Part shown: one piece after another, positions 13,885 to 42,723 of the stretch | Layout: the number at the start of each line of letters is the position of its first letter | How positions within the stretch are numbered: position 1 is the first letter of the stretch | From: Strigamia acuminata | Taxonomy: Eukaryota > Arthropoda > Chilopoda > Geophilomorpha > Linotaeniidae | DNA: 60,000 nt | Direction of reading: 5' to 3' | Assembly: GCA_949358305.1 (NCBI GenBank) | Contig: OX442320.1 | Location: 2,050,501-2,110,500, forward strand | Position numbers and translations under genes: made by a program | Notes under the pieces: model-generated | Told to the model about the DNA's origin: nothing | Database searches by the model: none | What the model saw: the letters and a program-made list of their open reading frames with translations, nothing else

Positions 13885-15389
13885 TTACATAAAATCCGCC
13901 ATTGGTTTCTTGAACTCTTCCATCTTGTCTTTCACTTCGGGGCAAATCTGCAAATAAAGGTCAAATGTATAATAATCCCTGATAACTTTATATTCAATTA
14001 AATGCACATTTTCAATATTAATTAATCGTGCTAAACAAAAGGTGTGCAACAGATAAATCCAAAGATGAACTGCCTAGAGAAATGCATAGAGAAAAGTTGT
14101 CTCATAGTTTCGCCATCTTGCAAGGAGAGCTTTTAATGACTAATAATAAGTTCAGAAAGAATAAATATAATACCTTTACTAAGCCGTTGAAGTAACAAGA
14201 AAAAAATTCTTTTTTGTTTTCCTTAAAGCAGTTGTCAATTAATGCATTAATTTCTTTTCCTTTCTGTTGGATAAGAGTTGTGTGTAAGTGATTATAATTT
14301 TGTTTTCTGAACAAAAGTGAATGCACTCACAGCTTCGTCGGCGATGTACTCTTTAACCTGAGCTTGCATTGCACCTGCAGTCATCATGTCCGTTGCCTGT
14401 AACATAGTTTTGCGACATTATTTCACATTTCAAGGCATCAGTTCACAAATTTCACCTTCTCCTTCATGCAGTCTTTGACATCCGACTATATGTAAACAAT
14501 AATGTTTGATAAATTTCAAATGTATAAAGATGGAAACACAAACAATCAAGCGGGTAAATGTCAAAAGATTGCGAATTAAGGAGAAGTGGCAAAACCTCGC
14601 CTAATTGAGCAAAAAAAATGAAGCAACCATTAAAATGTTGCTTTTAATCGTGATAGATATTGCATTCACACTGACGAGCGAGTTTGAATTTAGCAGCTTG
14701 AAGCCTTTTGAGTTTCACCCGTGTCCTTCCTTGTGTTTTCATTTCATGGGCAATACATTACCGCTTTTTCGCACAGGTTTTTCACCATTGTTTTGAAGTG
14801 CTCAGTCATTCCTTCATGAGCTTTTTCCTGTAAATATGATAAGAATTGGTTATAGCCCAAGCAGATTGTTAATTTTCTAATTTGTAAATTACAGTATTTC
14901 GAGAAAGCACACAAATTGACGAGGGAACAGAGGAGGGAGGGAGGGAGGGAGGGAGGGCGAGGTGGGTTTTACCTAAAACAACTGATACACCTGGCTTTTG
15001 GTATGGGGAATATGGGGAATGAATGGGTCAACAACCATCAGAGTGCGGGCAAAGTCCAAGACGCTTGTCTTGTGGGTGTCCTTGTTTGACTCTGTTTCTT
15101 GCAACTGATTGGTCCCCTAAGTACTTTCGGTACTGACGAATCACCCTGGACCGTTCCGTTAGTTGAAGCAAAAGTTGAAGTGGTTTTTTGGATTGTCTCG
15201 TATTGACTTACATTTTTGGCATATTTTTCCATATCAAAGCAATTCTATAAATAAAATATCAGTATGACTAAAATTTGGTTGAAATTGTTTTGTTTCGTTA
15301 TGCTATTAAGAACTTACACATTTCACTTGAGATGCAAAACAAGTAAAGAAAATGAAGCAAACTGCTCCTGTGAATATTGCGCGATTCAT
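13885..15389 (-). CDS. Six-cysteine small-exon secreted protein, paralogue 1
   Basis: I assemble seven exons: 15389-15318, 15244-15212, 14827-14762, 14485-14456, 14396-14331, 14263-14174 and 13947-13885. Their lengths are 72, 33, 66, 30, 66, 90 and 63 nt. Every one is a multiple of three, and every intron is phase 0 with GT-AG borders. The product is 139 residues: a signal peptide (MNRAIFTGAVCFIFFTCFA) followed by Lys/Glu-rich, probably helical segments. Counting from NCF, cysteine spacing is C-27-C-8-C-37-C-10-C-8-C, ending in ICPEVK. Insect odorant-binding proteins have C-(about 25-30)-C-3-C-(about 36-42)-C-(8-14)-C-8-C, so all spacings but the second agree. One extra Cys (KC) precedes the first. 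No family was recognised by sequence; an OBP-like fold is inference. Paralogues lie at 22517-24660 and 39657-42723. Confidence 0.8.
14932..14957. repeat. GAGG simple repeat
   Basis: About six tandem GAGG/GGGA units within the intron between exons 2 and 3 of paralogue 1. Confidence 0.9.
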
Positions 15390-15390
15390 C

Positions 15391-15392
15391 TC

Positions 15393-15427
<35 letters not shown>
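15391..15427. repeat. GA simple repeat
   Basis: An almost perfect (GA)n run immediately upstream of the start codon of paralogue 1, in its 5' UTR or promoter. Confidence 0.9.
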
Positions 15428-15431
<4 letters not shown>

Positions 15432-16290: not shown

Positions 16291-16683
16291 ACCCCTTTCG
16301 CCGAATCCCCTTTCACCGAATTCCGTTTCGCCGAATTTCGTTTTTCATTTTCGGCGAAATGGGAATTCCCGTTTCGCTGGAACGGAACGGAACGGAACGA
16401 ACGAAACGAATGGCATGAACAGATTGAATTGCCAGAGAATGGACTTGGTTTGTATACTAGTAAATCCGTGAACGTTTTAAAAATATTTCGTTTATTCATT
16501 GTAAATTGTGCTAAATGGTTGAATAGTGTAAAAAAAAGTGCCTAAAGTGATTTACTCGTGCCAAAAGAGGTGAAAATAGGTGCAAATTAGAGCAAATTGC
16601 TGGAAAAGATTGCGCAGGAAAGATTAAAAAATGCAGCTTTTCTTTAAATTTCTTTAAATTGGTGTAAAAATGGTGACAATTTG

Positions 16684-16875
16684 TGGAAATTGGTCAGAAA
16701 ATGTGTGGAAATTGTTAGAAAATGTGTGGAAATTGTTAGAAAATGTGTGGAAATTGGTTAGAAAATGTGTGGAAATTGGTCAGAAAATGTGTGGAAATTG
16801 TTAGAAAATGTGTGGAAATTGGTCAGAAAATGTGTGGAAATTGGTTAGAAAATGTGTGGAATTTTGTTAGAAAAT
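16684..16875. repeat. 21- to 22-bp tandem array
   Basis: About nine imperfect copies of a unit reading AAATGTGTGGAAATTGTTAG or a close variant. Part of it is open in one frame but has no protein character. Confidence 0.85.
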
Positions 16876-16972
16876 GTGCAAAAATTGATAAACCGAAAGT
16901 TCGAAAAAATGGAACTTTTTTTTATAATCGATCGATTACTCTCTTTTTTCGTTTTCGGTGAAACAGAAATTC

Positions 16973-17096
16973 TGAAGAGTCAGATATGCAATGGAGCTTT
17001 CATATATTCATACATTCATCTTGAATTTTTAATAACACACGTTTCATACATAGTTACCAAAATACATTGTTGATTTTATAAAGTATTGTTCCAACA
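16973..17096 (-). repeat. 3' LTR of copia copy 2
   Basis: A 124-bp direct repeat starting TGAAGAGTCAG and ending TTGTTCCAACA. A purine-rich tract (minus strand of 17097-17112) lies just inside it. Confidence 0.96.
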
Positions 17097-17106
17097 TTCT
17101 CGCCCT

Positions 17107-20100
17107 TCATCGTAACGGTGAATCACATAGTCGCAAATTAATAAAATCCTTTGTGGTGATCAATTTCAAACCACCTGTTGCCTTAGTCATAATATCTGCA
17201 GGCATCTCTTCTGTAGACATATAGTTGATATCATAAGTTCCATCTTGAACATCCTCACGTAAAAATAACACTCTCCTGTGAAAGTGTTTTGTGCGCCCAT
17301 GGTACTGGGGGTTTTTAGTGAGGGCGATGGCGGCTTGATTATCAGAAAAGATTTGAATCGGTCTTTGAATTAATTTGGTCATCTCAAGCTGTTCCAGCAA
17401 TGATGTTATCCATTTCAGTTCTTTCGCTAACTCTACCATTGCTACAAATTCCGATTCACATGTTGATAAGGCAATTAGCTTTTGCTTCTTTGATTGCCAA
17501 GTGATGGTTGAATTTCCCAGCATGGTGATAAATCCTGCATAGCTCTTTGCATCAACCGAGGCACTGTTCCAAGATGCATCGGCATATCCTCGCAATAATC
17601 CAAATCCCTGAGAATAAATTAATGACAAATCAGCCGTTCCTTTTAAATAGCGAAGGATCTTCTTTGCTGCTGTCCAGTGAGCGTCATGCGGATTCTGCAA
17701 CCACTGCGATAGATAGGATACCGCATAAGCGATATCTGGTCGAGTAGCTTGAGCCAAGTAGGATAAAGAGCCAATTAATTCTCGATAGGGCTCGTTAATT
17801 AATGGTGATCCGAGCGGATAATTAGGGTCTTCCAGTTTCTGGGATGGGTCCATGGGTGCTCTACTTGTCTTTGCATTCATCATGTTGAATTTAAGCAAGA
17901 CCTCAAATATATACTTGGATTGGTCCAACAAAAGTGCATACGGGTGGGTCTGTCGCCTAATCCTGATGCCCAAAATCTCTGTGACTTCTCCAAGGTCGAT
18001 CAGATTAACTTGCTTCATCACTTTCCCCATTATCTGATCGAGCATCTGTGTGGCGTTAGTTGCCGGCATCAAATCGTCGACATAAGTGCCCATTATTATA
18101 ATGTCGGTACCATTTTTCCACAGATGAACGCATGGATCAACTACCAACTTCTTAAATCCCGCTTGTGCAAGTACCTTGTTCAGGGCTTCATGCCAAGCGC
18201 GGCCTGCCTGAGGTAAACCATAAACTGCCTTATTTAGGAGCCAAACATCGTTTTCTCGCCCAGGTTGAATAAAGCCTTGAGGTTGCTCCATGTAGACTAC
18301 CTCCTTCAATTTCGCATGGAGGTATGCTGATTTGACATCGTAGTGCTTGACTATAAAGCCAAACATTGCAGCAATGGCTAAGATAATTCTGATGGTAGCC
18401 AATCGAGCCACAGGGGAAAAAGACTCTGAATAGTCAATGCCCTTGTGGACATTGTAGCCTTGAACAACTAGACGGGCTTTATATTTCTTCTTAAACTTGT
18501 ATACCCAGCGAGAGCCAATTACTTTTGCATCCTGTGGTCTTGGAACCAAAGTCCAAGTATTTTGTTGGGTGTGGGAGGCTATTTCCTCTTCCATAGCCTT
18601 TACCCATTGGCTCGCCTGGTCAGATGTCACTGCCTCAGCAAATGTCTTTGGTTCATGTATCGGTACTTCAACCTGTGGGTTGGTGTTCACCACATGTGCT
18701 CGTTGGTTCTCCCAACGTTGTGTGCGATGCTGTCGCCAATCAATTGCCTGATAAGGCTGGACCTGACGTCGTATCCTTGAAGGATATCTCCGTTCTGGAC
18801 CCGGTGTCGGTCTGGTGGGTTGTTGAAAAACAACTGGGGGTTGGGAGCTTACATCTCCCTCAGGTATGTACACCATTTCTGGTTCATGATCAGGTTTTAC
18901 ATTCTGTCCTGATAATAATTCCATTCCCAATCTGGACTCATTGAACTTAACATCTCGTGCCACAATGATATTATTAGTATCTTGGTCATAAAACTTCCAG
19001 CCCGGCTTCAACAAGGGATAGCCCATGAAAATGACCGGTTTAGCACGAGAATCCAACTTATTCCTATGTTGCTTTGGAACCCATGCGTAAGCAATAGTGC
19101 CAAAAATCCTCATATTAGATATATTTGGTTTTCTTCCAGTAAGTCTTTCATAGGGTGTCTCGCCCGGAAACCTACGTGTTGGTGAGCGATTCATTGCATA
19201 TGCGGCACATGCCGCAGCTTCAGCCCAAAACTTGTGTGGCAACTTGGAATCATTCAATAGTGTCCTTGTCTTGTCAAGGAGGGATCTATTTGCCCTTTCA
19301 GAGACTCCATTTTGGGATGGACTATAGATGACGGTAGTTTGATGTTGAATTCCCCTTGTGTCCAAAATTGCCCTAAAGTGTTGATTTAAAAATTCAGTCC
19401 CGTTGTCTGAGCGGACCATCTTGACTTTGGCTTCAAACTTATTTTGATGTGTGTCTATAAATTGTTCAAAAACACGCGAAGTCTCAGCCTTTGAGACCAA
19501 AAAACGAGGAAACAAACACCTTGAATAGTCATCTACAATCATGAAGATATACTCTGATCTTCCAATTGAAGGGTGTGGCATGGGACCACACAGGTCTACA
19601 TGCAGCATCTGTAGCGGCCCACTGGCTCTAATTGATGGTGCAGGCAAAAACGGGCTTCTGGTGTGCTTTGCTGTCACACATTCCTCACACAATGTCCATT
19701 TGTGAACTTTATCAATTGTCATCCCTGTCACCATATTTTTCTTTACTAAATCCTTTAAGGCACGATTGTTTATGTGTGCCAACCTGCGGTGCCACAACTC
19801 TGATCCCGTCAATGGAGGTTGTGATTGAATAGCCATCACTACTGCTTTGTCTTCCATTGTGGGTGCATTGGGGCTTCTTGCTTGTAATCTGAACAATCCC
19901 CGATGGGATGAAGCTTGGAACACTTGTACATTGTCAATTGTAGAAACTGTACAGCCACGGGCTGTAAATGCCACTTTATAGCCCAAATTAGTCATTCTGC
20001 TTATTGATAACAGGTTACCACTCAATTCAGGCACATAATAGGTGTCTTCCAACTTGAGTACTCTGGCTTGGTCACCAAACCAAATATTTAGCATGATTAC

Positions 20101-21243
20101 ACCAGTTCCTGATGCTTTAATCTCTCTGCCATCAGCCAATGAAACCATCTTGGCAAATGAGTCATCTAATGTTGTGAATAAACTCCTGTCTCTACTCATA
20201 TGTGAAGTTGCACCCGAATCCAGGTACCATATGTAAGGGTCAAATTGTTCTTGGTCTATCAAAAGTTCGTTCTCCCTGTCCACATGAGCAGGGTCACTGT
20301 CCGTTGCAACAAGAGCGAACTGTGGTGTTTGATCTTCCACATCTGTCACTCGCTTGGATGTGGACGGTCCAGATGATCCTCGTCCTCGGGGAACCCAAGG
20401 TCTTGACCGGGGAGGAAAACCACGATTGACAGATGTAGATGGCTGAGTGTCTTGGTTCTGCTGGGGTGGGCGGCGACAATCCACTTGTCTATGGCCTGGA
20501 ATCCCACAATTCCAACATTTGAGTTGGGTTCGACCTCTGGCTGGTCTGCCACCTCTGCCCCGTTGATAGGAGGTTGCACCTCGTACCCAATTGGCACTCT
20601 CCAGCTTTGGAGTTGTCTGTTGTGGCTTTCTTGCTTCCTCAGCCAATAAGGCACGTTGCAAAACTTGAATTGTCATTGCTGCCACTCCCAGTACATCACA
20701 GCTGTGTACAACATTAATATAATCAGCAGTTAATCCTTTCAAGATGTGTGAGCAAAGTTCTGGTTCTTCAGTCACTATTCCCAATGATTGGAGTTCCTGA
20801 GCTACTGCTGTGGCACGCCCAATGTATTCCAGAATTGTCTCTCTAGGTTTCATCTGAATTCTTCCCAAGTCAGTTTTTAATTGAACTTTTAATTCTGCTA
20901 AGACACCTTGGTTCTGGACTTGCAATTTCTCCCATGCTTCTGCTGCAGTAACAACATTCATCACATATTTCATTTGAGTAGCATCTATTGTGGATAAAAT
21001 TGTATTCAGCACTTCCACATCTTTAACCTGCCATTCATCCAATCTGGTATTGAAAGTTTTCTCATCTTCAGTTATCAATTTAATAGGCATCACAGGTGCT
21101 GCAGTTGGATCCCACTTGTGTTTGGATCTCAGTAGAATTGCCACTCTAAATTTCCATGCACCATAGTTTCTGCCATTCAACTTCTCAACTGGAATTACAA
21201 ATTGATCTGCCATCATTTCCTCAGAAATAGCACTTAAAATCAA
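17107..21243 (-). CDS. Copia copy 2 Gag-Pol polyprotein, intact
   Basis: A single 1378-codon ORF. In order: Gag with a CCHC knuckle (C243, C246, H251, C256) after an Arg/Gly-rich stretch; protease motif LDSGATSH (about 341-348); integrase with LWHRRLAHINN...CEECVTAK zinc region, DLCGPMPHPSIGR and SDNGTEFLNQ; RT with IGSRWVYKFKKKYKARLV and catalytic YVDDLMPA; RNase H with YADASWNS and STCESEFVAM. No stops, frameshifts or lost catalytic motifs are visible. A better Gag start may be the Met pair at residues 10-11. Together with identical LTRs, this copy looks capable of encoding every product. Confidence 0.97.
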   Translation of the reverse strand: MILSAISEEMMADQFVIPVEKLNGRNYGAWKFRVAILLRSKHKWDPTAAPVMPIKLITEDEKTFNTRLDEWQVKDVEVLNTILSTIDATQMKYVMNVVTAAEAWEKLQVQNQGVLAELKVQLKTDLGRIQMKPRETILEYIGRATAVAQELQSLGIVTEEPELCSHILKGLTADYINVVHSCDVLGVAAMTIQVLQRALLAEEARKPQQTTPKLESANWVRGATSYQRGRGGRPARGRTQLKCWNCGIPGHRQVDCRRPPQQNQDTQPSTSVNRGFPPRSRPWVPRGRGSSGPSTSKRVTDVEDQTPQFALVATDSDPAHVDRENELLIDQEQFDPYIWYLDSGATSHMSRDRSLFTTLDDSFAKMVSLADGREIKASGTGVIMLNIWFGDQARVLKLEDTYYVPELSGNLLSISRMTNLGYKVAFTARGCTVSTIDNVQVFQASSHRGLFRLQARSPNAPTMEDKAVVMAIQSQPPLTGSELWHRRLAHINNRALKDLVKKNMVTGMTIDKVHKWTLCEECVTAKHTRSPFLPAPSIRASGPLQMLHVDLCGPMPHPSIGRSEYIFMIVDDYSRCLFPRFLVSKAETSRVFEQFIDTHQNKFEAKVKMVRSDNGTEFLNQHFRAILDTRGIQHQTTVIYSPSQNGVSERANRSLLDKTRTLLNDSKLPHKFWAEAAACAAYAMNRSPTRRFPGETPYERLTGRKPNISNMRIFGTIAYAWVPKQHRNKLDSRAKPVIFMGYPLLKPGWKFYDQDTNNIIVARDVKFNESRLGMELLSGQNVKPDHEPEMVYIPEGDVSSQPPVVFQQPTRPTPGPERRYPSRIRRQVQPYQAIDWRQHRTQRWENQRAHVVNTNPQVEVPIHEPKTFAEAVTSDQASQWVKAMEEEIASHTQQNTWTLVPRPQDAKVIGSRWVYKFKKKYKARLVVQGYNVHKGIDYSESFSPVARLATIRIILAIAAMFGFIVKHYDVKSAYLHAKLKEVVYMEQPQGFIQPGRENDVWLLNKAVYGLPQAGRAWHEALNKVLAQAGFKKLVVDPCVHLWKNGTDIIIMGTYVDDLMPATNATQMLDQIMGKVMKQVNLIDLGEVTEILGIRIRRQTHPYALLLDQSKYIFEVLLKFNMMNAKTSRAPMDPSQKLEDPNYPLGSPLINEPYRELIGSLSYLAQATRPDIAYAVSYLSQWLQNPHDAHWTAAKKILRYLKGTADLSLIYSQGFGLLRGYADASWNSASVDAKSYAGFITMLGNSTITWQSKKQKLIALSTCESEFVAMVELAKELKWITSLLEQLEMTKLIQRPIQIFSDNQAAIALTKNPQYHGRTKHFHRRVLFLREDVQDGTYDINYMSTEEMPADIMTKATGGLKLITTKDFINLRLCDSPLR

Positions 21244-21413
21244 CTAATCAGTCCAGGGCTTAATGTTGCACAGGCTTATCACTCAGGCAATTCTGGGCCT
21301 AATTCTCATGGAACATTTAAAACTGCATTAAAACTTCAGATTTCCAACCTTTCTTCACAATATGCAATTGTTCAGCCAAAAAACAGTCCATATTTCACAT
21401 AATAAATTTGTGT

Positions 21414-21429
21414 CTGGGCTCATAACCCA
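21414..21429 (-). other. Primer-binding site, tRNA-Met anticodon arm (copia copy 2)
   Basis: The plus strand reads CTGGGCTCATAACCCA, directly abutting the LTR. It matches the initiator Met anticodon stem-loop (CTGGGCCCATAACCCA) with one mismatch next to the anticodon. This implies priming from an internal tRNA fragment, as in Drosophila copia. Confidence 0.85.
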
Positions 21430-21553
21430 TGAAGAGTCAGATATGCAATGGAGCTTTCATATATTCATACATTCATCTTGAATTTTTAATAACACACGTT
21501 TCATACATAGTTACCAAAATACATTGTTGATTTTATAAAGTATTGTTCCAACA
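21430..21553 (-). repeat. 5' LTR of copia copy 2
   Basis: A copy of the 16973-17096 repeat with no difference seen by eye; it is the promoter side for the minus-strand element. Confidence 0.96.
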
Positions 21554-22516: not shown

Positions 22517-24660
22517 TCATATGTCGTAACCCAGTTTTCTCACTTCTGCACGGTAGAAACCTTTCACTTCTGGACAGGCCTATTAATTTGAATAATTAAT
22601 TGAAAAATAAATGTAGAAAAGACAAACAATTAAATGAAGCGACTTACTTCTTCTAACTTCTCCGTGATACAAGGAAAAAATTTCTAGAAATAGAAAAGGT
22701 TGTTTTCTAAGGGTACGGTATTTGTCATGATTTATAATTTTTAGACAAGAGTAAAAAAATAAGTAAAATTGAATGGTTTGTTGATTGATTGTAAAAAAGA
22801 ATAAATTTCACGTGATGTGGAACAGTGAGGATGTTAAAAATAAGCATGGCTTACCTTGGAATCATTTTTACATGCGTCAACCATGTCGAAAAGTTTTTCT
22901 TTGACCTGATGAAAATTCAAAATAAAAGCATTGAGTTTTGATTTTTAATTTTAATTTATGTCTGGCAATTGACAGACAAATTTACAGACAAATGCAATTT
23001 TCGGCTTGAGCAAATCCAAATCAAACCAAATGTCTTTGGTTTGATTCGTTAATGAGATGAACACTGTACTCACCTCATCGTTCAGTATATATTTGGCCAG
23101 CATCTTCTTATAACCGTCAATGTCCATAAAACTTTCTATCTGTAGAAAAATTAATTACTGTGTCGCGGTCATGCATTTTGGCATTTCTTTCTTTTTAATC
23201 TATTCATGCGCTGGATTTGCGCGTACATTATTTCTACTTTATCTTATATCTAACTTTTCATTTGTTTTTAAGTTTTGTTTTAATGACTCATTCTACTTTC
23301 CCCCTCCTTTCCAAATTAATTATTCACACAATACAGTAGTTTAGTTGCTCTGATTTTGTGACAATTGTATTTTGTAATATATTAGAGTGCGTTCAATTTC
23401 TATAAAAGAAAAGTCAAATATTGATGTGACCGAATAGGACGTCAGAGTAGGTTGTCAGTCGTGGCTTACAAGTTAGATTTTCACTTTAAAGCTCATCTTT
23501 ATGATATTGTAATTTTATTCCTGGAACTGTTTTACCATGGTGCAATTGTTAATTCTGGTTGTTATTTACAGAATTAAGAAATTCAGAAATTAAAATTAAG
23601 CAGTTTGATGGGTCGTTTATTGGCCACCACAATCTTCAGACCTCACACCTCATGATTTCTTCCGATGGGGTTACATTAACAGTAAGTCGATAGTGTAAAA
23701 CACATCATCCACTACAGTACTACAGAAGATCTCTAGCAACGAATTTCAGTTGCTTGCAGTGAAACTTTTAGTTGTTGGTTATCAGTGTTGTTTCAACACC
23801 TTTTTCTAGTACACATGTTTAGACTAATTCTGGGCAAAAATTGGAAGTTTTTTTTTAGATTTTTTTTAGATTTTGGTTAGATGTTGTTAGACTGCATTCC
23901 ATATTGTACTCTATATTGTGCCACTTAGCAAGGTCTGTGTGGGGACTGGGGATTGGCACCCAATGGTGCTTAACGGTACTGTAACTGCTGTGTTCTAATA
24001 GGAACAGGTGATCAGCAAGGTACACTCTTCCTATCTCTGATGTTTATCTCCAGAGTTAGTAATTGAAATGCCAAGAAGATGACCTTTAAAATGACAAATA
24101 AAGAAAATAAACCGGATAGCCTATCGTTGATTCGCTTAAAATTAATGTAGCCTATGTATTCTGTCCTCTCAGCTCACATGTATTTCAATAAAATGAATAA
24201 GTATTCTGTGGTAATAAAATCAGCGTCCTCATTCATTAAAGGGAAGCAAGACGGGAGACTTTTTCTGATGCGTGAGAAAACTATTATACAGTAGCAGTTA
24301 CTTACGATGATTTTTTGAACATACCGTTTTTCTCATACATGCAGAAGATTTTTCCTAGAAAAAGAAAAATTGTAATAACTAAACAAGCACAAATAATTGG
24401 TCACTATAGTTTAGTTTCTTTTACTTTATCATTTGGATTGTCCTTATGACAAGACTTGTTCAAAGCTTCCACCATATCTTTTTCAGTAGAAGGTTTACTC
24501 GCCTAAATAATAACATTTTATTAAAATTGTAGTAAAACAAACCATCATTATTACTTACATCTTCTTTCCACTTCGATAGATTAAAACATTTTGCTTCTTC
24601 TGCAGTCAATGTTGCACAAAGATAAAGTGCAGTAAGAGTGAGAAAAATGAGAATTTTCAT
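22517..24660 (-). CDS. Six-cysteine small-exon secreted protein, paralogue 2
   Basis: I assemble seven exons: 24660-24559, 24502-24425, 24354-24325, 23139-23074, 22905-22855, 22683-22648 and 22579-22517. Their lengths are 102, 78, 30, 66, 51, 36 and 63 nt, all multiples of three, with every intron phase 0. The protein has 141 residues: signal peptide (MKILIFLTLTALYLCATLTA), then KCF and Lys-rich helical segments ending in ACPEVK plus a short tail. Cysteine spacing is C-26-C-13-C-37-C-9-C-8-C. Exons of 30, 66 and 63 nt have same-size counterparts in paralogue 1. Paralogue 1's 90-nt exon corresponds to two exons here (51 and 36 nt). Helices and conserved Cys order suggest a small disulfide-bonded carrier-like protein; function unknown. 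Confidence 0.8.
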
Positions 24661-26375: not shown

Positions 26376-26379
26376 AAGC

Positions 26380-28029
26380 TGTGACGGTGACGACCACAAC
26401 TCCTATCGCATGATAGTACCGGGTATAAGTCGCGTGAATAAGTGATTAAAATACGAGATAATAAAGACAACAGAGTTTCTCAAAACGTGACATTTATTGT
26501 TACTAAACAATATAATCAATCCTAAAAGTTATACAAATTCTAATGCCGACATTTGGCAAGTTAAATACAAGTTAAACTATACATGAAATTGGCTGTAAAA
26601 CAGCCCTAAAATAATATGATTACGGTCATTGGTGATCCGGGGTTCGGGAACGGCAAAACGCCCGCTCGACCGAGTATAGATGTCATCAGATAGCCGGGCT
26701 GGCTGTGTCCTCGCGGCTTCCGTCGGCGCTTCGTAATCGTGGAACTGGTTCCTTCACGTTCCTGGTTCGCATCGTGTAATGGTCCGTGTAATGCTTCTTG
26801 GTTCGATCCGAGAGGTGCGGTTGACTCATGTGCACCGCCACAACTAGGGTTGGAAATTGGTAATGAATAAATGAAGTCATGTATTCGCCAAGGTTCCGCT
26901 TGCGAATTATATTTAATTCGCGATGTTGTGAGTTTAATAAATTAACTCAATAAATTGTATTCAATTTATTGTTACGAATTTGATTCGTCATACAGTGAAA
27001 TAAGTCTCGTGACTTACTTCGGTTGTTAACTTGTTGCCAAGTTTAAACAATTAAGGTTTTTTATCAACTACAAAATATAATAAAGATTAAACATCGCAAC
27101 ACACAATTGCCGTCAAAGTTTGCCTTGCTGAGCAGAACAGTATCGCGCGTGCCCTAAATAACAGTGCGGTGAGAGACGACACTGGTATTCAGGGGGATAT
27201 AGCCCGCAGTTCTGCACAACAGAATTAATCACCTGAGATACTACTCATAAGTAGACTGCTTTGGCACCATCACCGAAGAGATATAACTTTCCCAAACACA
27301 TAGTGCTACTGGCGGTAACTGCATGTTTTGCATGCAGACTGCTTTGGCACCATCAAGTGATGGAGTCAATCTCTTTCAGTAACAGTGCTACTAACGGTTA
27401 CTAAATACTTTGGTATCACACGTGATTCTATTGTCCGACCACGAGGATACTTATGCGGGAGGCTTTCTCCTCGGCAAGACCGTTTGACGGAAACATTAAC
27501 AGTCCGAACTTCGCCTTCAGTTGACGGGGGTTGCATGGCTCAGCAGAGCCATGCTATGCATGGACCGGTAGGCCCATGCCCTGAGTAAGAAACAGTTATT
27601 TGACATGCGGAACATACCAAATAACCAGAAATCAAGAACTAACTAACTTCCTGTTGTCAGGGAGTTTTATACTCGGTGGGATTAAGTTCCACCAATCTCG
27701 TATCGCAGGAAGTGGATACGGAGATGCAAATGGGGATTATGCTAATCTTTTAGCGCAAACCGGAACTGGATACCGGGGACAGGAAATGGATACACAGAAC
27801 GGAAATACATTCGAAACCGTGTTTCTCGTCATGTATCGGTGATAAAGCAGTAACGCCTATTTTATCTTCTTAAATATTGATAATATATCTTTATATTATC
27901 GATGTGCATCACATTTAGTCGTTATCAAACATAATAATATGTTTGTGAACTATTTATATGTAAAATAGTAAGCTCGAGGTTGAATTTGCCGCTAGTACTA
28001 GTGGCGCCATCTATTGCTAATTTGTCACA
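26380..28029 (-). repeat. 3' LTR of the gypsy element
   Basis: A 1650-bp direct repeat, long for this group. It contains short ORFs that recur identically in the other LTR and have no protein character. Confidence 0.96.
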
Positions 28030-28041
28030 CATCCCCCTTAA
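28030..28041 (-). other. Polypurine tract of the gypsy element
   Basis: The minus strand reads TTAAGGGGGATG directly before the 3' LTR, the expected plus-strand primer position. Confidence 0.75.
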
Positions 28042-30015: not shown

Positions 30016-30607
30016 AATTCTACAAATATAGAAAACGTTTTAGTTTTATTTGCAATACTTTTATAAGCGCGCGCCCTCTATTGAGAAAACGCGTAACTGA
30101 ATTTACGAATTTTATAATTATGATTCGTTACAATTTTATATTTTCGTGTATTGATAATTTTATCGAACTTACGAAAATGTCCTGCTTCCTTTAGAAGCGT
30201 ATGTCGTGGAATTATGAGTGTAGTCGCCTCGACGACAACTTGGAGTTTAGAGCACGTGGCTTTCAAATCTTCCGCCGCTAATAAACGAATTCCGCTGGTT
30301 CGTATTTCTTCGAATATTCAAAGAAATTTCATGATATATATATATAACTTTATATGCATAATCATAATACCTGTATTCGTTGATTGATAGTTAACAATGT
30401 CAACGCGTTTGACCGTGATTTTTGTTGAACTTGACGAAGTTCTTCTTCTCTCACGTGTGTGTTAGAAGACTGAGTATAGAACGAATCTTTTACTCTCCAC
30501 CCGGGGTCATAATTTATCCGGTGACTTCGCGAATTTCGATTTGAATATTCAATAACTGATTTAAATCAATATCTTTTTAGAATATTCTTTTTATATTTAG
30601 AATCTTT
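30016..30607 (-). other. Pol-ORF3 spacer of the gypsy element
   Basis: 592 nt between the pol stop and the third ORF. The last 50 nt contain a branch-point-like ACTAAAAC, a pyrimidine stretch and the acceptor AG at 30020-30021. No other coding signal. Confidence 0.55.
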
Positions 30608-34774: not shown

Positions 34775-34965
34775 CGAAAAAGGAGTGTTGGGATAAGGTT
34801 CCTTAAATACATACTTTGGATTCCTTTTCCTAGTTTTACGATTAGGTCGTTTAATTTCCTCATCTTGAATTACTAATTTGTTCAGAGTTTCGTTTAGAAC
34901 ATTTTCTATTTCTGAGGATAATGTACTACTCTGGTTTTTTAGGGGGTTTTCGGTAACCCCCTCTA

Positions 34966-37119
34966 CTAGTTTTTTGGAGCCGGTGGACCTTCAATCGCCA
35001 AAGGCGGAGTGGTCGCATTTTTTGGATCCAAAAATTTAGTGAATAAGTCCGACATGGATTTTGTCATACTAGTTTGCATAGTAGTTTTGAAGTCTTCAAG
35101 CTTTTGGTCCAAAGATTCAGCGGTCACCCAATTTTGTCTCTGTCGTTTAAAAAGATCAGAGGCGGGATTGGTATTGGTATTATTACCAGTACCTTGGGGC
35201 TTGTCCTGAACAAATTTTCTTTTTTGTAACAAAGGACATTCCCTCTTAAAGTGTCCTGGTTGATTACAATGGAAACATTTTCCAGTTGCTTTCTCCGATA
35301 GGGCACATACCATGTTGTTGAATCCAACATCGTCTTCAAGATTGTCTGTCTCGTCAGATTCCATAGGTACAACTTCTGGTTCGGCGTTCAACGTCTGAGT
35401 AGATCGTATGAGTGGGCGCGAACTCCTGGCGTCTTTACCTCTTTGAGTATTTGACGGGACAGTTTCGTCCTCTTTATTGACAATAGTGTCCACACTAGCA
35501 TTTTGGGCTTCGAAAAGAGCCCTATTCTGCCGGACAAATTGAAATATGTCATTAAATGATTCTTCATAAAGACCTCTATCGATTATTCGATTGTAACTAA
35601 CTAAGTTCAAATTCTCGAGAAGAGTGGGGGCTTCATCTCTTTTTGAATAAGATCCTTGAGCTTGTTTAAATCTCAAAAGAAATGTATAAAGTGGCTCTTC
35701 TGGGCCCTGGATTAAATTTCGAAGCTTTCGGGCTCGAGTGACAGGGATCATGTCAAACTCCGCCAAAAACATCTTTTCGAAAGTTTTCCAGTCAACAAAT
35801 TTGTCGAGGTTATCGGTATGCCATTCGTGGGCTATACCAGATAAATAAGTTGGTACTCCGCGTTTTACCATCTCATCCAGGGTTAAACCTTTAGCGACAG
35901 CGACTGTTTTGGCTGTAGCTAAAAATTTAGCCACGTCCTTCTGTTTTCCATCGAAAACAGGCATATCCTGACCTTTGAAAAAGGTTTTGCTCGAATTGTT
36001 TGCATTATTATTTTGTTGTGCATTATTCTGCATAAATTGTTGTACTTGCTGTGCACAATCAGTTTGAATATTTCGCACATGGGTAAGGATGGCTCCCAAG
36101 TCGTCGGTGGAAAATCTCGCTTGAGATGAACTACCAGCGGAGGATGCCGAACCAGAATTATGTTCAAAATTGGGCAGATTTCCCTTAGGGACCTGATTGT
36201 CCTGGGGGATTTCTTTCCTTGGAGGAACATAATTCTCATACTGTTTATGATTGCCAGATGGTACATGTTGTCCATGTGGAACACTATTTTCATTTTGTAC
36301 TCGTTCTGGGGGTGTCTGATTTGAACGAGTCTTTCCCACCGGTAAATTTTGAATAACGGGGGATGGTGAGATCGGATCGGATCTCCTTGGAGTTCGATTT
36401 GACACTCTTTTTGACTGCGTTGGGGGGGCAAACTGTCCTTTCCCCGGTGTCGGAGGGGCATAATGTCTATTTCCAGATGTTGGAGTAACATACTGTCTGT
36501 GTCCCGAGTTTTGGGAGATATTTTGTCTATTCCCTGAAGTTTGGGGGATAAAACCCGAATTACTATGGTTAATCGTTCGATTAACACTAGTTGATCTAGA
36601 CCTTGGTTTGGCCAGATTTAAAGGACTATTAGAACTGGGTGTTCTTTGTCCAGAACTTTGTTGACTACGAGATCGGCTAAACGATGGTTCGCGTACCATT
36701 CTATCGTTTAGCTGTGGAGTCGACACTATCCGGGCTTGATATCCCAACCTCTTTTTAGGAGAGGGAAAGTCCAGCTTACGATTCGTGGGAATCGTTTTCC
36801 GTGGAGTTCGGTGTGAAGTCCGCGAATGCCGACTTTCGTTCTCCGAATCTTCATCTTCATCGGGTCTAATTCTCTGATTTCTTTTCTCAAGTACGCGTAC
36901 ATGATTAACCGCTTCGGTTATTGTTTTGAAATCAACCCGATTCAGATTATAGAGTTGACAATACTCTGTTAAATCGTCCGGAATTAAATCCGTTTGGTCT
37001 TCGAGTCGGACGTAACTATTTTCCAAGTTTCTGTCATCGACTTCTCGTTCATTCATATGAATGTTTTCGTCAGACATAATAAAAGTTTTAAATTCTTTAT
37101 TACTAAAGAACGATAACAC
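34966..37119 (-). CDS. Gypsy element Gag
   Basis: A 717-codon ORF. The N-terminal 300 residues are Ser/Arg/Asn/Pro-rich and include short repeats of the type SGNRQ. A capsid-like helical region follows (FFKGQDMPVFDGKQKDVAKF onward). A CCHC zinc knuckle (CFHCNQPGHFKREC) lies near residue 620. A second Met (MSDENIHM, 37077) is a likely start. The final codons Lys-Asn-stop form the slippery site described at 34969-34975. Gag packages element RNA into cytoplasmic particles. The length is large for a gypsy Gag. Confidence 0.9.
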   Translation of the reverse strand: MLSFFSNKEFKTFIMSDENIHMNEREVDDRNLENSYVRLEDQTDLIPDDLTEYCQLYNLNRVDFKTITEAVNHVRVLEKRNQRIRPDEDEDSENESRHSRTSHRTPRKTIPTNRKLDFPSPKKRLGYQARIVSTPQLNDRMVREPSFSRSRSQQSSGQRTPSSNSPLNLAKPRSRSTSVNRTINHSNSGFIPQTSGNRQNISQNSGHRQYVTPTSGNRHYAPPTPGKGQFAPPTQSKRVSNRTPRRSDPISPSPVIQNLPVGKTRSNQTPPERVQNENSVPHGQHVPSGNHKQYENYVPPRKEIPQDNQVPKGNLPNFEHNSGSASSAGSSSQARFSTDDLGAILTHVRNIQTDCAQQVQQFMQNNAQQNNNANNSSKTFFKGQDMPVFDGKQKDVAKFLATAKTVAVAKGLTLDEMVKRGVPTYLSGIAHEWHTDNLDKFVDWKTFEKMFLAEFDMIPVTRARKLRNLIQGPEEPLYTFLLRFKQAQGSYSKRDEAPTLLENLNLVSYNRIIDRGLYEESFNDIFQFVRQNRALFEAQNASVDTIVNKEDETVPSNTQRGKDARSSRPLIRSTQTLNAEPEVVPMESDETDNLEDDVGFNNMVCALSEKATGKCFHCNQPGHFKRECPLLQKRKFVQDKPQGTGNNTNTNPASDLFKRQRQNWVTAESLDQKLEDFKTTMQTSMTKSMSDLFTKFLDPKNATTPPLAIEGPPAPKN
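34969..34975 (-). promoter_or_regulatory. Predicted -1 ribosomal frameshift site, A AAA AAC
   Basis: On the minus strand the heptamer A AAA AAC is in the gag frame immediately before its TAG stop. The -1 frame is then open without a stop through the 190-nt gap into pol. A AAA AAC is a classical -1 slippery heptamer. I did not establish a downstream pseudoknot. Confidence 0.82.
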
Positions 37120-37864
37120 ACTTTATAAAAATACACTTCAAAATAACAATACACTTCGATAAGGTTAAGTTTAAACTCCACGTGCTGGTTAAACGTGTTA
37201 AACTATCGACAAACTTTAAACAATCAAATGAATCCTACTACAAGTAAACTAGCGTCGGGTGAGAATGCGCTTTAAACTATTTGTTAAAATAATAGATGAA
37301 ATACACTTAACTTTTGCTGGTTTATGGCGTGGAAAAATTCGAATCGGGACTGAACGGGACGGCGTGGTCAAGATGGCTACTGGAACACGTGTCTGCAGGT
37401 CTGGTCTGGATACGAATGGTCGTCTGTAGTCTGGATCCGCGTGGCATCGAGGATCGATAATCCTTTAATCCCTCGACACTTTATTGGTGGAAAGTTATTT
37501 TATCCAATGATAAAAATGGAAACTAATCCTTTATTTTAGTAGTTTTCTACTACGTCCGCACTTTGGCCTGGTCAATCTCGTTATTGATTGGATATTTTCT
37601 TTCGAAAATATTCAACCAACATTGAAACTGTTTTACAGACCTTCCGTGAAAATTTAGAAAATAAATTTTTCAATTATTGGAGGGTTTTATAACACAACAT
37701 AACATTCCCTTTAAGGTTAGATTTCTTACGAATTCCAACATTTTTAAAGACATTTTCCTACTTCGCAAAAGTAGAAATATATAATTCGTTTCAAAATGTT
37801 ATACTCTTTATTTATCTCAATTTTCGCTTTCTATTAAATTCGGTAAATTTAAACTTTGCAACCT
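37120..37864 (-). other. Leader of the gypsy element
   Basis: About 745 nt between primer-binding site and gag. Non-coding; it would hold packaging signals and any splice donor used for the third ORF. Confidence 0.5.
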
Positions 37865-37882
37865 ATCTCGGTGGGACCTCCA
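37865..37882 (-). other. Primer-binding site, tRNA-Gln 3' end (gypsy)
   Basis: The plus strand reads ATCTCGGTGGGACCTCCA, which is the 3' end of metazoan tRNA-Gln including CCA, 2 nt inside the 5' LTR. Eighteen consecutive matches to the remembered tRNA make the primer assignment strong. Confidence 0.88.
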
Positions 37883-37884
37883 CG

Positions 37885-39534
37885 TGTGACGGTGACGACC
37901 ACAACTCCTATCGCATGATAGTACCGGGTATAAGTCGCGTGAATAAGTGATTAAAATACGAGATAATAAAGACAACAGAGTTTCTCAAAACGTGACATTT
38001 ATTGTTACTAAACAATATAATCAATCCTAAAAGTTATACAAATTCTAATGCCGACATTTGGCAAGTTAAATACAAGTTAAACTATACATGAAATTGGCTG
38101 TAAAACAGCCCTAAAATAATATGATTACGGTCATTGGTGATCCGGGGTTCGGGAACGGCAAAACGCCCGCTCGACCGAGTATAGATGTCATCAGATAGCC
38201 GGGCTGGCTGTGTCCTCGCGGCTTCCGTCGGCGCTTCGTAATCGTGGAACTGGTTCCTTCACGTTCCTGGTTCGCATCGTGTAATGGTCCGTGTAATGCT
38301 TCTTGGTTCGATCCGAGAGGTGCGGTTGACTCATGTGCACCGCCACAACTAGGGTTGGAAATTGGTAATGAATAAATGAAGTCATGTATTCGCCAAGGTT
38401 CCGCTTGCGAATTATATTTAATTCGCGATGTTGTGAGTTTAATAAATTAACTCAATAAATTGTATTCAATTTATTGTTACGAATTTGATTCGTCATACAG
38501 TGAAATAAGTCTCGTGACTTACTTCGGTTGTTAACTTGTTGCCAAGTTTAAACAATTAAGGTTTTTTATCAACTACAAAATATAATAAAGATTAAACATC
38601 GCAACACACAATTGCCGTCAAAGTTCGCCTTGCTGAGCAGAACAGTATCGCGCGTGCCCTAAATAACAGTGCGGTGAGAGACGACACTGGTATTCAGGGG
38701 GATATAGCCCGCAGTTCTGCACAACAGAATTAATCACCTGAGATACTACTCATAAGTAGACTGCTTTGGCACCATCACCGAAGAGATATAACTTTCCCAA
38801 ACACATAGTGCTACTGGCGGTAACTGCATGTTTTGCATGCAGACTGCTTTGGCACCATCAAGTGATGGAGTCAATCTCTTTCAGTAACAGTGCTACTAAC
38901 GGTTACTAAATACTTTGGTATCACACGTGATTCTATTGTCCGACCACGAGGATACTTATGCGGGAGGCTTTCTCCTCGGCAAGACCGTTTGACGGAAACA
39001 TTAACAGTCCGAACTTCGCCTTCAGTTGACGGGGGTTGCATGGCTCAGCAGAGCCATGCTATGCATGGACCGGTAGGCCCATGCCCTGAGTAAGAAACAG
39101 TTATTTGACATGCGGAACATACCAAATAACCAGAAATCAAGAACTAACTAACTTCCTGTTGTCAGGGAGTTTTATACTCGGTGGGATTAAGTTCCACCAA
39201 TCTCGTATCGCAGGAAGTGGATACGGAGATGCAAATGGGGATTATGCTAATCTTTTAGCGCAAACCGGAACTGGATACCGGGGACAGGAAATGGATACAC
39301 AGAACGGAAATACATTCGAAACCGTGTTTCTCGTCATGTATCGGTGATAAAGCAGTAACGCCTATTTTATCTTCTTAAATATTGATAATATATCTTTATA
39401 TTATCGATGTGCATCACATTTAGTCGTTATCAAACATAATAATATGTTTGTGAACTATTTATATGTAAAATAGTAAGCTCGAGGTTGAATTTGCCGCTAG
39501 TACTAGTGGCGCCATCTATTGCTAATTTGTCACA
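37885..39534 (-). repeat. 5' LTR of the gypsy element
   Basis: A 1650-bp partner of 26380-28029. It starts TGTGACGG and ends TGTCACA, a short terminal inverted repeat (TGTGAC/GTCACA). Confidence 0.96.
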
Positions 39535-39656
39535 AAGCCAATTCAGTTTGCTATCATCTGCTTTGTGTTGTATATTTATTAAAGGTTTTTTTTTAATTGA
39601 GCAATTACATTCCTTTATTACTACCAAATATGGCAATTACAATTTTTTTCTTTTCC

Positions 39657-42600
39657 TTATGCTTTCTTTGATTCTGATTTCTTGTCACTCCATTTCTTTT
39701 TCCACGATATGATCTTGTCGGCAAATTTTTTGACTTCAGGACATGGCTAGAAAAGAAAACATTTTTAAAACGATAGAACTTGAAAATCATATTTTAAATT
39801 ATACTCCATTAGATATTTCTTCCAAGCAGCACAACCAGTACTCACGCCCGTCCTGAAAATTGAGATGAATAATAATATAATGAATTGATTATATAAATTT
39901 CATTAATCGTTTTTACCTTATCTTTGCATTTTGCAATTGCGGTGTTCACGGCCGCTTTTTTCTAAAAGAAAAAAATATAAACATACCTAGAATTGACATT
40001 CTTGCAATTCTACGCAGTTACCTACACACTTGTAAAAATTAAAAACAAGAGTACAAATATCGTCAAGTTATTGCAGTTATTTTTAATTTTATAATTGATT
40101 GGTAGGTAATGGGACATGCCAAATCCTTGTAGCGTTGTTGCAACATTGTTTTTCAATAAGTTGTAACTTTTCAGCCATCAAGATGTCAAGATGTCAATTG
40201 TAAAGTTGCAATGACATTTGATTTGATCATGGCCTACAACTTATTATGCTGTACATTATCCTGACATTGAACATGAAATTTGGGATCAGCATTGGATTGC
40301 ACCCACACCCATCTTTCTTTTTACTCACAGCAGCAAATTACTGTAGTGACATTTATTTCTATTCATGCCGGGAAAAGGATTATTCTCCCACCTTGTATAA
40401 TCGTACAAACCGCTAATGCTTGTAAACTTGAGTGAAATGTCACAGAGGTGCTAACGGATTAGAAAACAAATAATATATTATTTGTTTTGCTAATAATTAC
40501 TCACACTGTCATTTATAAGATTAGCGATGATTTTCTCCTTTATTTCTTCTTTGGTTAGGTTTTTTTGCGCTGTTTTTTCCTGTCGTGTTTAGAGAAGTGT
40601 ACTTAGAATTTGACTAATAATATTCAAAAAGGTTTACTTACAAGGTGAAGTTTTTCTTGCATGCATTGCTTACGGCCACCCTGTAATTGAGATTTTAAAA
40701 GTGCCTTAATCCTCCAATTCTAGACATTGTAGATGTTTGCCCACACTGACATTTATTTTGATAAGACATAACTACATTTCTACCCCCAAATTTGTCACAT
40801 TATTTCGACGCTGCATAATTCCCTGTACATTGTGCAATACACACCGCGAAACCTACAAGTATTCTAAATTCACATTTGAATTGTCATGTGTACTTGTCAC
40901 GATCCGGCATTAAGCGCTCCTTATTTCCTTAATTGTTTAACGCGTATTCCCATTATTTGCTCCTGTTATTACAATTTCCTAATGTTAATAAACCTACCTT
41001 AATATCCCATTTGTTTGTGTTGTTTTTTTAGTTTGTTTATCCCTTGGCCTGTTCTAGTGTGATTTCTTTGATCACATCAGACCAGTCTAAGTCTTGTAAT
41101 ATTCACTGTTTCCTCTCCTTACTCATCCTTATTTTTCCTAGCTAATTTGCATTTCTAATCTCGCGTGAGTGAATCATCTTATTAGACATTCACAATGCGC
41201 GCTGATTGGTTTCTGAGCTGGCCACTGATTGGCTGTGCGCTTTCTGTTTTGGCTCTGGCCCAAGTTTGCCTTAGAGCGCTTGACAAGGCTGGACTCAGGC
41301 AGAAGGTTCATGCCATTAGACCTAATAAGAGCTTTAATTAGCCGATGGTCAGATTGGTTACCTTTCTCCCATTCTTGCCTCCATGCGGTTTCTGATGCCC
41401 ATGGTGAGCACTCATATTGTCACCTCGCGCTTTTAGCTTGGAAACCTACTCCTTTTTGCTGTTCTTTTGCTTTGTTTGATGCCATTGATGCGTGCCTGCG
41501 GACTGGAATTGAATCAATCTGCAGTTTTTTTTGTGTCTTCGTGCGCGTATTTAATGCGCAATTGCTTAGCTTGACCGTCTCGCCATTAGGGACCCCAACC
41601 AAGTTTGGTGTGTGGACGCTATCTGCTACCACCTAGTTGTTGACGACAGTCCGAAATGGCACGTAACCTCAACTAGACTGTGGATATGCGCTCTACTATT
41701 CTAATTAATTCTTTTTACAAATTCTAAGATACCCGTGCAAAATTCGTGATTTGATCGAGCGAGGGGATAATTTGCCGCCACCCTTCTGGCATATCGTCAA
41801 CAAACAGGCTCTTGCTTAAGGCCAAGCTCCCTTCAATCGTAACCGGCGCGTATGTCAAAACGTGTTTACCCCATCGTATGAAGCCGGTTCATTACATACT
41901 TTTAATCGAATAAAATAGAATAGGCAAAAACTGAAAGAAATTTGTTAGAAAATATTGATTTTGATTTTCACTTCGACTCACACAGGGAAACATGCACCGA
42001 AAATCTCTTTCTTTCCCATTTTGATTCAAATTTAAAGCTCTTTAACTGTGAGATAATAAAACAGTCTGGTTGTTTCAACTTACCTTAACTGATTTACAGC
42101 CATCCCATGCGTCTTTCATCTTGAATAACATATATTTCACAATTATTTTCCATTTACCAAAGATTATTATCACAGCATGAAGTATTGGATTTAATGGTTT
42201 GTAAATGACATAAAACATGATATTGTTACAAATGACAAAATCAAATAATTCATGCCGTGTGTAGGTGTTTAGTTCTCACTTTCTTCTTGCAACATTTTTT
42301 GATTTCCCCATCATCCTGAATGACATAAAAGAGTAAGATGATGTTTTAGTCAAGATTTAACACAGTTTGAAACGCATACTTACAGCCTTTGCATTTTCAG
42401 ATTTGCATGCATCAATGACCGGTTTGTATTTTTTTTCAATTCTCTCTTTTATTTTCTAGAATATTATTTTTTTAAAAAGTAACTTTTCAGTTTTATTTTT
42501 GATTATTTCTATTTTTAGTGTATACATTACCGCTTTCCAGCCGGACTTGACATCTTTAAAACATTTCTAAATTTTATAAAATATAAAGTGAACACGTTGA

Positions 42601-42723
42601 AAAATTAGAATTAGGTTTAAATTATCGTAATAATATGAATATACTACACAGTACCTCTTCTTTTGATTCTGCAACATAAGCCACGCAAACCAAAGTTACT
42701 GCGATAACAAGCAAAAGTTTCAT
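39657..42723 (-). CDS. Six-cysteine small-exon secreted protein, paralogue 3
   Basis: I assemble ten exons: 42723-42655, 42566-42531, 42455-42384, 42315-42280, 42119-42084, 40680-40642, 40579-40505, 39961-39917, 39852-39805 and 39746-39657. Lengths are 69, 36, 72, 36, 36, 39, 75, 45, 48 and 90 nt, all multiples of three and all introns phase 0. The product is 181 residues with signal peptide MKLLLVIAVTLVCVAYVA. It shares with its paralogues the opening KCF, the C-26-C first spacing, the 8-residue last spacing and PCPEVK. Two extra 36-nt exons (DDGEIKKCCKKK and MKDAWDGCKSVK) add four cysteines, lengthening the C2-C3 region, and a Lys-rich C-terminal tail is added. The ninth exon's donor (GTATAA) is the weakest. 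A poly(A) signal lies at 39575-39580, just before the gypsy LTR. Confidence 0.77.
40681..42083. other. Large intron of paralogue 3 with a more GC-rich insert
   Basis: Intron 5 is 1.4 kb, much longer than its neighbours. About 40900-41880 has a different base composition and a 135-codon open frame (41229-41636) with no recognisable protein. It may be an unrecognised insertion; no terminal repeats were identified. Confidence 0.4.

What the first reader, a model, noticed from the sequence alone, without database searches (positions are those of the whole stretch)
13885..42723. A modular secreted protein family made only of phase-0 small exons
Three same-strand paralogues (13885-15389, 22517-24660, 39657-42723) can be assembled into 7, 7 and 10 exons. 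All 24 exons are multiples of three (30-102 nt) and every intron is phase 0, so any exon can be skipped or duplicated without breaking the frame. Paralogue 3 has gained two 36-nt modules, each Cys-containing, and one exon of paralogue 1 corresponds to two in paralogue 2. This is the logic known from schistosome micro-exon genes, but the sequences are unlike anything I recognise. It suggests combinatorial diversification of a small secreted helical protein.
Basis: partly seen in the sequence, partly recalled or inferred. Interest (0 to 1): 0.9.

Follow-up and report, generated by a model that had tools for sequence, protein, structure and literature searches.

The report
Centipede odorant-binding-like tandem gene family
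Three neighbouring centipede genes, and at least eleven relatives elsewhere in the same genome, build a small secreted helical protein from seven to ten tiny exons that never break the reading frame, and the protein's second half resembles the odorant-binding carriers of insects, which the first centipede genome paper reported missing.

Summary
The genome matches the centipede Strigamia acuminata. Eleven further complete ten-exon models lie in clusters on C3 and C11, and S. maritima protein T1IM12 is 64% identical to paralogue 3 across both '36-nt modules', so these belong to the family, not to paralogue 3 alone.

The C-terminal half (exons 6-10) is odorant-binding-protein-like: cysteine gaps 37-43, 8-12, 8-9 in 15 of 15 proteins. 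As a profile it ranks pheromone-binding proteins and THP12 first among 177,635 PDB sequences; a reversed control finds none. No match is individually significant and Pfam's cut-off is not reached.

Combinatorial splicing has no support: every mature exon but one carries a conserved cysteine, and no RNA was available. Variety here comes from gene copies, with amino-acid change concentrated in exons 6, 7 and 9 of some C11 copies while introns stay alike. Best reading: a divergent OBP-like carrier family; tissue and ligand unknown.

The parts
15318..15389 (-). paralogue 1 exon 1, signal peptide (72 nt)
15212..15244 (-). paralogue 1 exon 2, first core Cys (33 nt)
14762..14827 (-). paralogue 1 exon 3, second core Cys (66 nt)
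14456..14485 (-). paralogue 1 exon 4, third core Cys (30 nt); by Cys spacing the counterpart of ten-exon exon 6
14331..14396 (-). paralogue 1 exon 5, Cys-free (66 nt)
14174..14263 (-). paralogue 1 exon 6, fourth and fifth core Cys; two exons elsewhere (90 nt)
13885..13947 (-). paralogue 1 exon 7, ICPEVK to stop (63 nt)
24559..24660 (-). paralogue 2 exon 1, signal peptide plus first core Cys (102 nt)
24425..24502 (-). paralogue 2 exon 2, second core Cys (78 nt)
24325..24354 (-). paralogue 2 exon 3, third core Cys (30 nt)
23074..23139 (-). paralogue 2 exon 4, Cys-free (66 nt)
22855..22905 (-). paralogue 2 exon 5, fourth core Cys (51 nt)
22648..22683 (-). paralogue 2 exon 6, fifth core Cys (36 nt)
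22517..22579 (-). paralogue 2 exon 7, ACPEVK to stop (63 nt)
42655..42723 (-). paralogue 3 exon 1, signal peptide (69 nt)
42531..42566 (-). paralogue 3 exon 2, first core Cys (36 nt)
42384..42455 (-). paralogue 3 exon 3, second core Cys (72 nt)
42280..42315 (-). paralogue 3 exon 4, CC (36 nt); no counterpart in paralogues 1 and 2, present in the other clusters and in T1IM12
42084..42119 (-). paralogue 3 exon 5, Cys (36 nt); no counterpart in paralogues 1 and 2
40642..40680 (-). paralogue 3 exon 6, Cys (39 nt); start of the OBP-like half
40505..40579 (-). paralogue 3 exon 7, Cys-free (75 nt)
39917..39961 (-). paralogue 3 exon 8, Cys (45 nt)
39805..39852 (-). paralogue 3 exon 9, CC (48 nt)
39657..39746 (-). 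paralogue 3 exon 10, PCPEVK to stop (90 nt)

Best explanation
A birth-and-death family of small secreted all-helical disulfide proteins in Strigamia centipedes, distantly related to arthropod odorant-binding proteins (OBPs), that most likely carry or bind small hydrophobic ligands outside cells (in sensory lymph, haemolymph or a gland secretion). The gene is cut, always between codons, into about one helix and one cysteine per exon: signal peptide; Cys; helix with Cys; Cys; Cys; Cys; Cys-free helix; Cys; Cys; CPxxK end. Shown: exon structure and phase, the clusters, the S. maritima orthologue, conserved cysteines, more amino-acid change in late exons than intron change in some copies. Inferred: secretion, helices, OBP-type fold of exons 6-10, disulfide pairing, ligand carriage. 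The exon layout matters over evolution (exons fused or split, a two-exon module gained or lost, a copy without exons 5-9); a role in splicing is not shown. Novelty comes from gene duplication plus fast change in exons 6, 7 and 9.
For: Genes; orthologue. OBP-likeness of the C-terminal half: Cys gaps 37-43 / 8-12 / 8-9 in 15 of 15. A mite study used the OBP-like pattern C1-X16-C2-X18-C3-X37-C4-X15-C5-X9-C6 (PMC7578799, passages). Profile A4 against the PDB: top three of 11 hits are two pheromone-binding proteins (E 0.025, 0.026) and THP12 (0.09); two more of the 11 are D7 proteins (OBP kin, recalled); a five-OBP profile finds 51 sequences at E <= 0.001 among 177,635; the reversed profile gives 0 hits. 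Profile-profile score against five insect OBPs 22.5, reached by 0 of 300 shuffles that keep Cys columns; reversed 9.1. C11g2 tail matches Pfam PBP_GOBP colinearly, positions 44-111 of 113, E 0.0067. Exons 6+7+9 against introns, C11g1/g3: odds ratio 5.7, p 1.7e-10; exons 1-5: 0.47, p 0.10.
Against: No match is individually significant: best PDB E 0.025; Pfam 17.0 bits against a cut-off of 22, and only 2 of 15 tails match PBP_GOBP at all. Single sequences do not find OBPs, and the genome search with PF01395 found one match, in what reads as a kinase gene. The insect C2-x3-C3 spacing is absent, and no relative was found for the N-terminal half. Full-length profiles are weaker: 3 of 300 Cys-keeping shuffles reach the score. 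The single-sequence AlphaFold model of T1IM12 is poor (pLDDT 54) and finds no OBP. Exons 6, 7 and 9 were picked after looking; over all exons p is 0.004, 0.045 and 0.76 for three non-independent pairs. C3g2/C3g3 shows no acceleration.
Confidence: 0.62

Rival explanations
1. A lineage-specific gland (venom or sternal-gland) protein family whose likeness to OBPs is convergent; helix-and-cysteine exons evolve fast because the proteins act on prey or predators.
For: Late exons diverge faster than introns in C11g1-g3. Tandem copies and broken copies. Three of 15 tails give a sub-threshold 15-16-residue match to Pfam Ectatomin (best 22.9 bits, cut-off 25). Centipede venoms hold uncharacterized families (PMC6878950, passages); as the passage reads, GOBPs are among the components of a Lithobius defensive secretion (PMC11170834, passages).
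Against: Paralogue 3 has a single, 64% identical counterpart in S. maritima. No expression data. Being OBP-like and being secreted from a gland do not exclude each other.
Confidence: 0.25
2. One reading: a micro-exon-gene-like system in which phase-0 exons are skipped or combined to give many isoforms per gene.
For: All exons symmetrical, 30-102 nt, so skipping keeps the frame; the copy C11g1b lacks exons 5-9 and what is left still joins in frame.
Against: Every mature exon but one carries a conserved Cys, so a single skip would usually leave an unpaired cysteine; many donors are the plain gtaagt; diversity is visible between genes instead. No RNA evidence either way.
Confidence: 0.08
3. The exon chains are artefacts of free choice of AG and GT sites in A+T-rich DNA.
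For: Short exons and sites picked by eye; in the window alone the symmetric-exon excess is weak (16 against 8 and 7).
Against: Same order, sizes and cysteines in 11 more complete models; the S. maritima protein follows paralogue 3 across its exon joints; 62 against 17 and 18 in the C11 cluster.
Confidence: 0.02

Closest known systems
Insect odorant-binding proteins (PBP/GOBP, Pfam PF01395), THP12 and D7 salivary proteins
   Same: Small secreted helical Cys proteins; spacing of the last four Cys; weak profile matches in the same register
   Different: No C2-x3-C3; two or more extra cysteines and two extra exons in the ten-exon form; N-terminal half without a found relative; below the Pfam cut-off
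Chelicerate OBP-like proteins (Varroa, Dermanyssus; PMC8222343, PMC7578799)
   Same: Non-insect, six Cys with a wide C2-C3 gap and C3-x37-C4 as in paralogues 1 and 2; the Varroa pairing C1-C6, C2-C3, C4-C5 would suit one hairpin per exon pair
   Different: Other gaps differ (C1-C2 26-27 against 16; C4-C5 9-10 against 15); their sequences were not compared here
Schistosome micro-exon genes (PMC4350168, passages)
   Same: Secreted proteins coded mostly by very small symmetrical exons, multicopy
   Different: Described as restricted to platyhelminths; there alternative splicing makes variants, here, so far as DNA shows, gene copies do
Aphid bicycle genes (PMC9168663, passages)
   Same: Many small same-phase exons in fast-evolving secreted proteins
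   Different: Almost all bicycle internal exons are phase 2, about 17 exons per gene; here phase 0 and 7-10

Membership tests
Insect OBP family (PBP/GOBP) | Pfam PF01395 gathering score (22 bits) | tested here: not met
   Best 17.0 bits, C11g2 tail; 2 of 15 tails match at all
Insect OBP family (PBP/GOBP) | C2-x3-C3 (recalled; seen in the typed OBPs) | tested here: not met
   8 (p1) and 13 (p2) residues between second and third core Cys (counted on the proteins)
Insect OBP family (PBP/GOBP) | Last four Cys with the OBP-type spacing (long, about 10, 8) | tested here: met
   15 of 15: 37-43, 8-12, 8-9; Bombyx PBP in A6 has C54, C97, C108, C117 = 42, 10, 8
OBP superfamily in the wide sense | Profile similarity beyond Cys spacing | tested here: inconclusive
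   C-terminal half: 0 of 300 Cys-keeping shuffles reach the score, top PDB ranks, but E 0.025 at best; full-length profile 3 of 300
OBP superfamily in the wide sense | Five or six helices around a cavity | tested here: inconclusive
   AlphaFold single-sequence model of T1IM12, pLDDT 54, all helix, no usable fold match
OBP superfamily in the wide sense | Binds small hydrophobic ligands | not testable with these tools
   needs protein
Chelicerate OBP-like | C1-X16-C2-X18-C3-X37-C4-X15-C5-X9-C6 | tested here: not met
   p1 27-8-37-10-8, p2 26-13-37-9-8; only X37 agrees exactly
Micro-exon genes | Most coding sequence in very small symmetrical exons | tested here: met
   24 of 24 exons 3n, 30-102 nt
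Micro-exon genes | Isoforms by exon skipping | not testable with these tools
   no RNA held
Bicycle genes | Internal exons phase 2 | tested here: not met
   phase 0 in the window genes; bicycle phase
Named centipede venom families (GEOTX, CHLTX and others) | Sequence similarity | not tested
   their sequences were not fetched

The most novel reading that the evidence does not exclude
Centipedes do have an OBP-type carrier repertoire that homology searches missed because it is split into exons of about a dozen to two dozen codons: an eight-cysteine OBP-like family in which nearly each exon is one helix with one cysteine, with exons 6, 7 and 9 under positive selection as a changing ligand or target surface, and evolution adding or removing disulfide-bearing exon pairs.
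Probability: 0.4. Interest if true: 0.8.

Novelty: new variant of a known kind. Interest (0 to 1): 0.62.

Why it matters
The S. maritima genome paper found no OBP in that centipede and inferred that centipedes smell on land with GR and IR receptors (PMC4244043, passages). A hidden OBP-like family would change that picture, and would show that exon-by-exon fragmentation can hide whole families from protein searches. The gene layout is also an unusually clean case of about one helix, one cysteine, one exon, which lets one test whether symmetric exons help a disulfide protein gain or lose parts without losing its frame.

Tried and rejected
Pfam with the three window proteins, PDB and the 5.8-billion-protein search with paralogue 2 alone: nothing significant; the genome search with paralogue 2 found only its own exons. 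The 9-protein alignment found only T1IM12; T1IM12 found only itself and in the own genome only paralogue 3. Rfam at gathering threshold: nothing in the window. The PF01395 hit at C9:5939200 (E 0.136) reads by eye as part of a kinase gene: rejected. AlphaFold on T1IM12 alone gave a poor model; Foldseek and VIA-align on it gave no usable match; OBPs are absent there, which shows nothing. The two 36-nt exons as a private gain of paralogue 3: rejected. Whether the module was gained once or lost in paralogues 1 and 2 stays open; the tree joins paralogues 1 and 2 as two long branches, support 78/77. Exon swapping between C11 copies as the cause of fast exons 6/7: no clear donor among the copies read. 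A chemosensory-protein control in profile-profile comparison scored lower than OBPs (p 0.084 against 0.017). A few full-length shuffles gave implausibly high scores (up to 132.8); not looked into, counted against me. Paper searches: T1IM12 0 papers; OBP-like + Strigamia maritima 1, a mite paper. Ectatomin match: below cut-off, three close copies only, not followed. Flanks of the window (20 kb each side) showed no further copy in the profile scan.
Full report
WHAT IS THERE. The three genes exist as described. One search found each exon once on the minus strand, with GT-AG borders, phase-0 introns and lengths divisible by three. Paralogue 1 has exons of 72, 33, 66, 30, 66, 90, 63 nt; paralogue 2 has 102, 78, 30, 66, 51, 36, 63; paralogue 3 has 69, 36, 72, 36, 36, 39, 75, 45, 48, 90. 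All 14 complete models (3 window genes plus the 11 below) have an AATAAA or ATTAAA within 150 nt after the stop, and 10 of 14 have a TATAWA within 150 nt before the ATG (no control positions were counted).

ORGANISM. The own genome is 237,517,015 bases in 157 contigs. Its contigs C1 and C11 are 66,985,994 and 9,836,499 bases, exactly the longest scaffold and the N90 printed for Strigamia acuminata qcStrAcum1.1 (PMC10556566, first of three parts of the text). The paper's total (237,534,282 in 158 scaffolds) and N50 scaffold (19,347,077 against C4's 19,343,292) differ slightly from what is held. The window is therefore taken as DNA of this centipede.

A FAMILY. A pattern for the last exon gave 18 genome hits, 3 for the control; 10 lie in clusters on C9, C3 and C11. 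One search assembled two complete ten-exon genes on C3 and four on C11. A profile scan of the fetched stretches and searches added five more on C11 (g2b, g5, g6, g7, g9). That makes 11 further complete models, 110 exons. Not counted as complete: C3g1 (remnant), C11g1b (exons 1-4 and 10 only, with 34 nt between exons 4 and 10), C11g8 (exon 1 not found), C11g10 (exons 1 and 4 not intact). Exon sizes follow one scheme in the 11 models: 57-66, 30-39, 72, 36, 36-42, 45-48, 54-72, 48-60, 36-39, 48-117 nt. Pattern and protein searches point to further C11 copies outside what was read, near 8.467, 8.471, 8.525 and, weakly, 8.643 Mb. My exon lister only offered lengths of 3n; one search is the count that did not assume it.

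THE RELATIVE IN S. MARITIMA. The 9-protein alignment found one protein among 5.77 billion: T1IM12, 179 aa, E 7.7e-35. It is 64% identical to paralogue 3 over 153 columns with 3 gap positions, across the exon 4 and 5 modules. In the own genome its 4 matches all fall in paralogue 3. The search reaches only relatives that share short words and are annotated, so absence of other S. maritima members shows little.

WHAT IT RESEMBLES. Six core cysteines are shared by all models; ten-exon genes have eight core cysteines (8-10 in all after residue 19). From exon 6 on, the gaps between the last four core cysteines are 37-43, 8-12 and 8-9 in 15 of 15 proteins (where CC or CxC occurs either choice stays in these ranges). 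This is the OBP spacing of the C-terminal part. The PDB search with that half (A4, 15 sequences) gave 11 hits up to E 10: pheromone-binding proteins 4inw and 2kph (0.025, 0.026; near-identical alignments), THP12 (0.09), an aldolase (0.1), D7 6v4c (0.22), MJ1187 (0.75), Nup205 (1.3), three gasdermin-B entries, D7 3dxl (8.7). Five of 11 are OBP kin (D7 by recall). OBPs are rare in the library: 51 of 177,635 at E <= 0.001 by a five-OBP profile, THP12 among them, D7 not. The reversed half (A5, 13 of the 15 rows) gave none. Full-length profiles were weaker: D7 at 0.63 (second of 4 hits), moth PBP1 at 1.1 (second of 2 hits). With all 15 rows the score is 22.1; the reversed 13 rows give 9.5. Full-length: 21.0, reached by 5 and 3 of 300. 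Pfam PBP_GOBP matches C11g2 (E 0.0067) and C11g3 (0.15) of 15 tails, below the cut-off. I therefore call it OBP-like, by works-like and probable distant kinship, and do not file it as a member of the insect family.

HOW IT CHANGES. Between C11g1 and C11g3 introns differ at 38 of 606 sites and exons 1-5 at about 6 of 196 nonsynonymous sites, but exons 6, 7 and 9 at about 34 of 123; Fisher p 1.7e-10 against introns. C11g2/g3 p 3e-7; C11g1/g2 (exons 6-9) 0.002; C11g4/g5 (exons 7-10) 4e-5; C11g5/g6 (exons 8-10) 0.012. The exons were chosen after seeing the table and the pairs share history; over all exons p is 0.004 (g1/g3), 0.045 (g2/g3), 0.76 (g1/g2). C3g2/g3 does not show it (67.5 of 406 nonsynonymous against 88 of 433 intron sites, p 0.21). 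Whole-gene dN/dS is 0.55-1.47 over eight pairs. This is change by copies; splicing could not be tested.

WHY NOT SPLICING. Nine of ten exons serve the mature protein and all but exon 7 carry a conserved cysteine. Skipping one would usually leave an unpaired cysteine. What evolution did do keeps the frame: exons fused or split in paralogues 1 and 2, absence of two neighbouring Cys exons there, and the loss of exons 5-9 in C11g1b. Absence of exons 4 and 5 takes two core cysteines, which would keep disulfides paired; the pairing itself is inferred. Which state is older is open: six-cysteine OBPs outside would favour gain, the spread of the ten-exon form over three clusters favours loss.

CONTEXT. 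Chipman et al. found two CSPs and no OBP in S. maritima (PMC4244043, passages); a survey of the same year found none in Myriapoda (PMC4145409, passages). OBP-like proteins in Myriapoda are mentioned in PMC8222343 (first of six parts and passages); one of the papers it cites for this was looked for and is not held, so I cannot say whether this family was among them. As the passage reads, GOBPs are among the components of a defensive secretion of the centipede Lithobius (PMC11170834, passages), which keeps a gland role open.

Noticed in passing
window 16973-21553: A copia-like element (ORF 17107-21243, minus strand; type recalled from its motifs) between 124-nt direct repeats that are 100% identical (16973-17096, 21430-21553): looks like a recent insertion between paralogues 1 and 2.
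   Followed up: no
window 26380-38184: A gypsy-like element (ORFs 28405-37119, minus strand; type recalled) between 300-nt direct repeats that are 100% identical (26380-26679, 37885-38184), looks like a recent insertion between paralogues 2 and 3. The tandem array is stretched by these two insertions.
   Followed up: no
window 10100-10558: Minus-strand ORF with a C1q domain just at Pfam's cut-off, 23.7 bits.
   Followed up: partly
window 46603-47274: Minus-strand ORF with a hydrophobic start and a long Thr-Pro repeat (TTPAVTTP), mucin-like by eye; Pfam gives only a sub-threshold Extensin match.
   Followed up: partly
window 16644-16912: A minisatellite of about 21-22 bp units.
   Followed up: no
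window 54104-54640: ORF that looks CD2BP2-like to me (recalled); Pfam gave nothing at E <= 0.01.
   Followed up: partly
C11:8488095-8488643 (C11g1b): Copy with exons 1-4 and 10 only; 34 nt lie between exon 4 and exon 10 and the joined frame stays open.
   Followed up: partly
C11g1-g3 last exon: Three close copies give a sub-threshold 15-16-residue match to Pfam Ectatomin.
   Followed up: no
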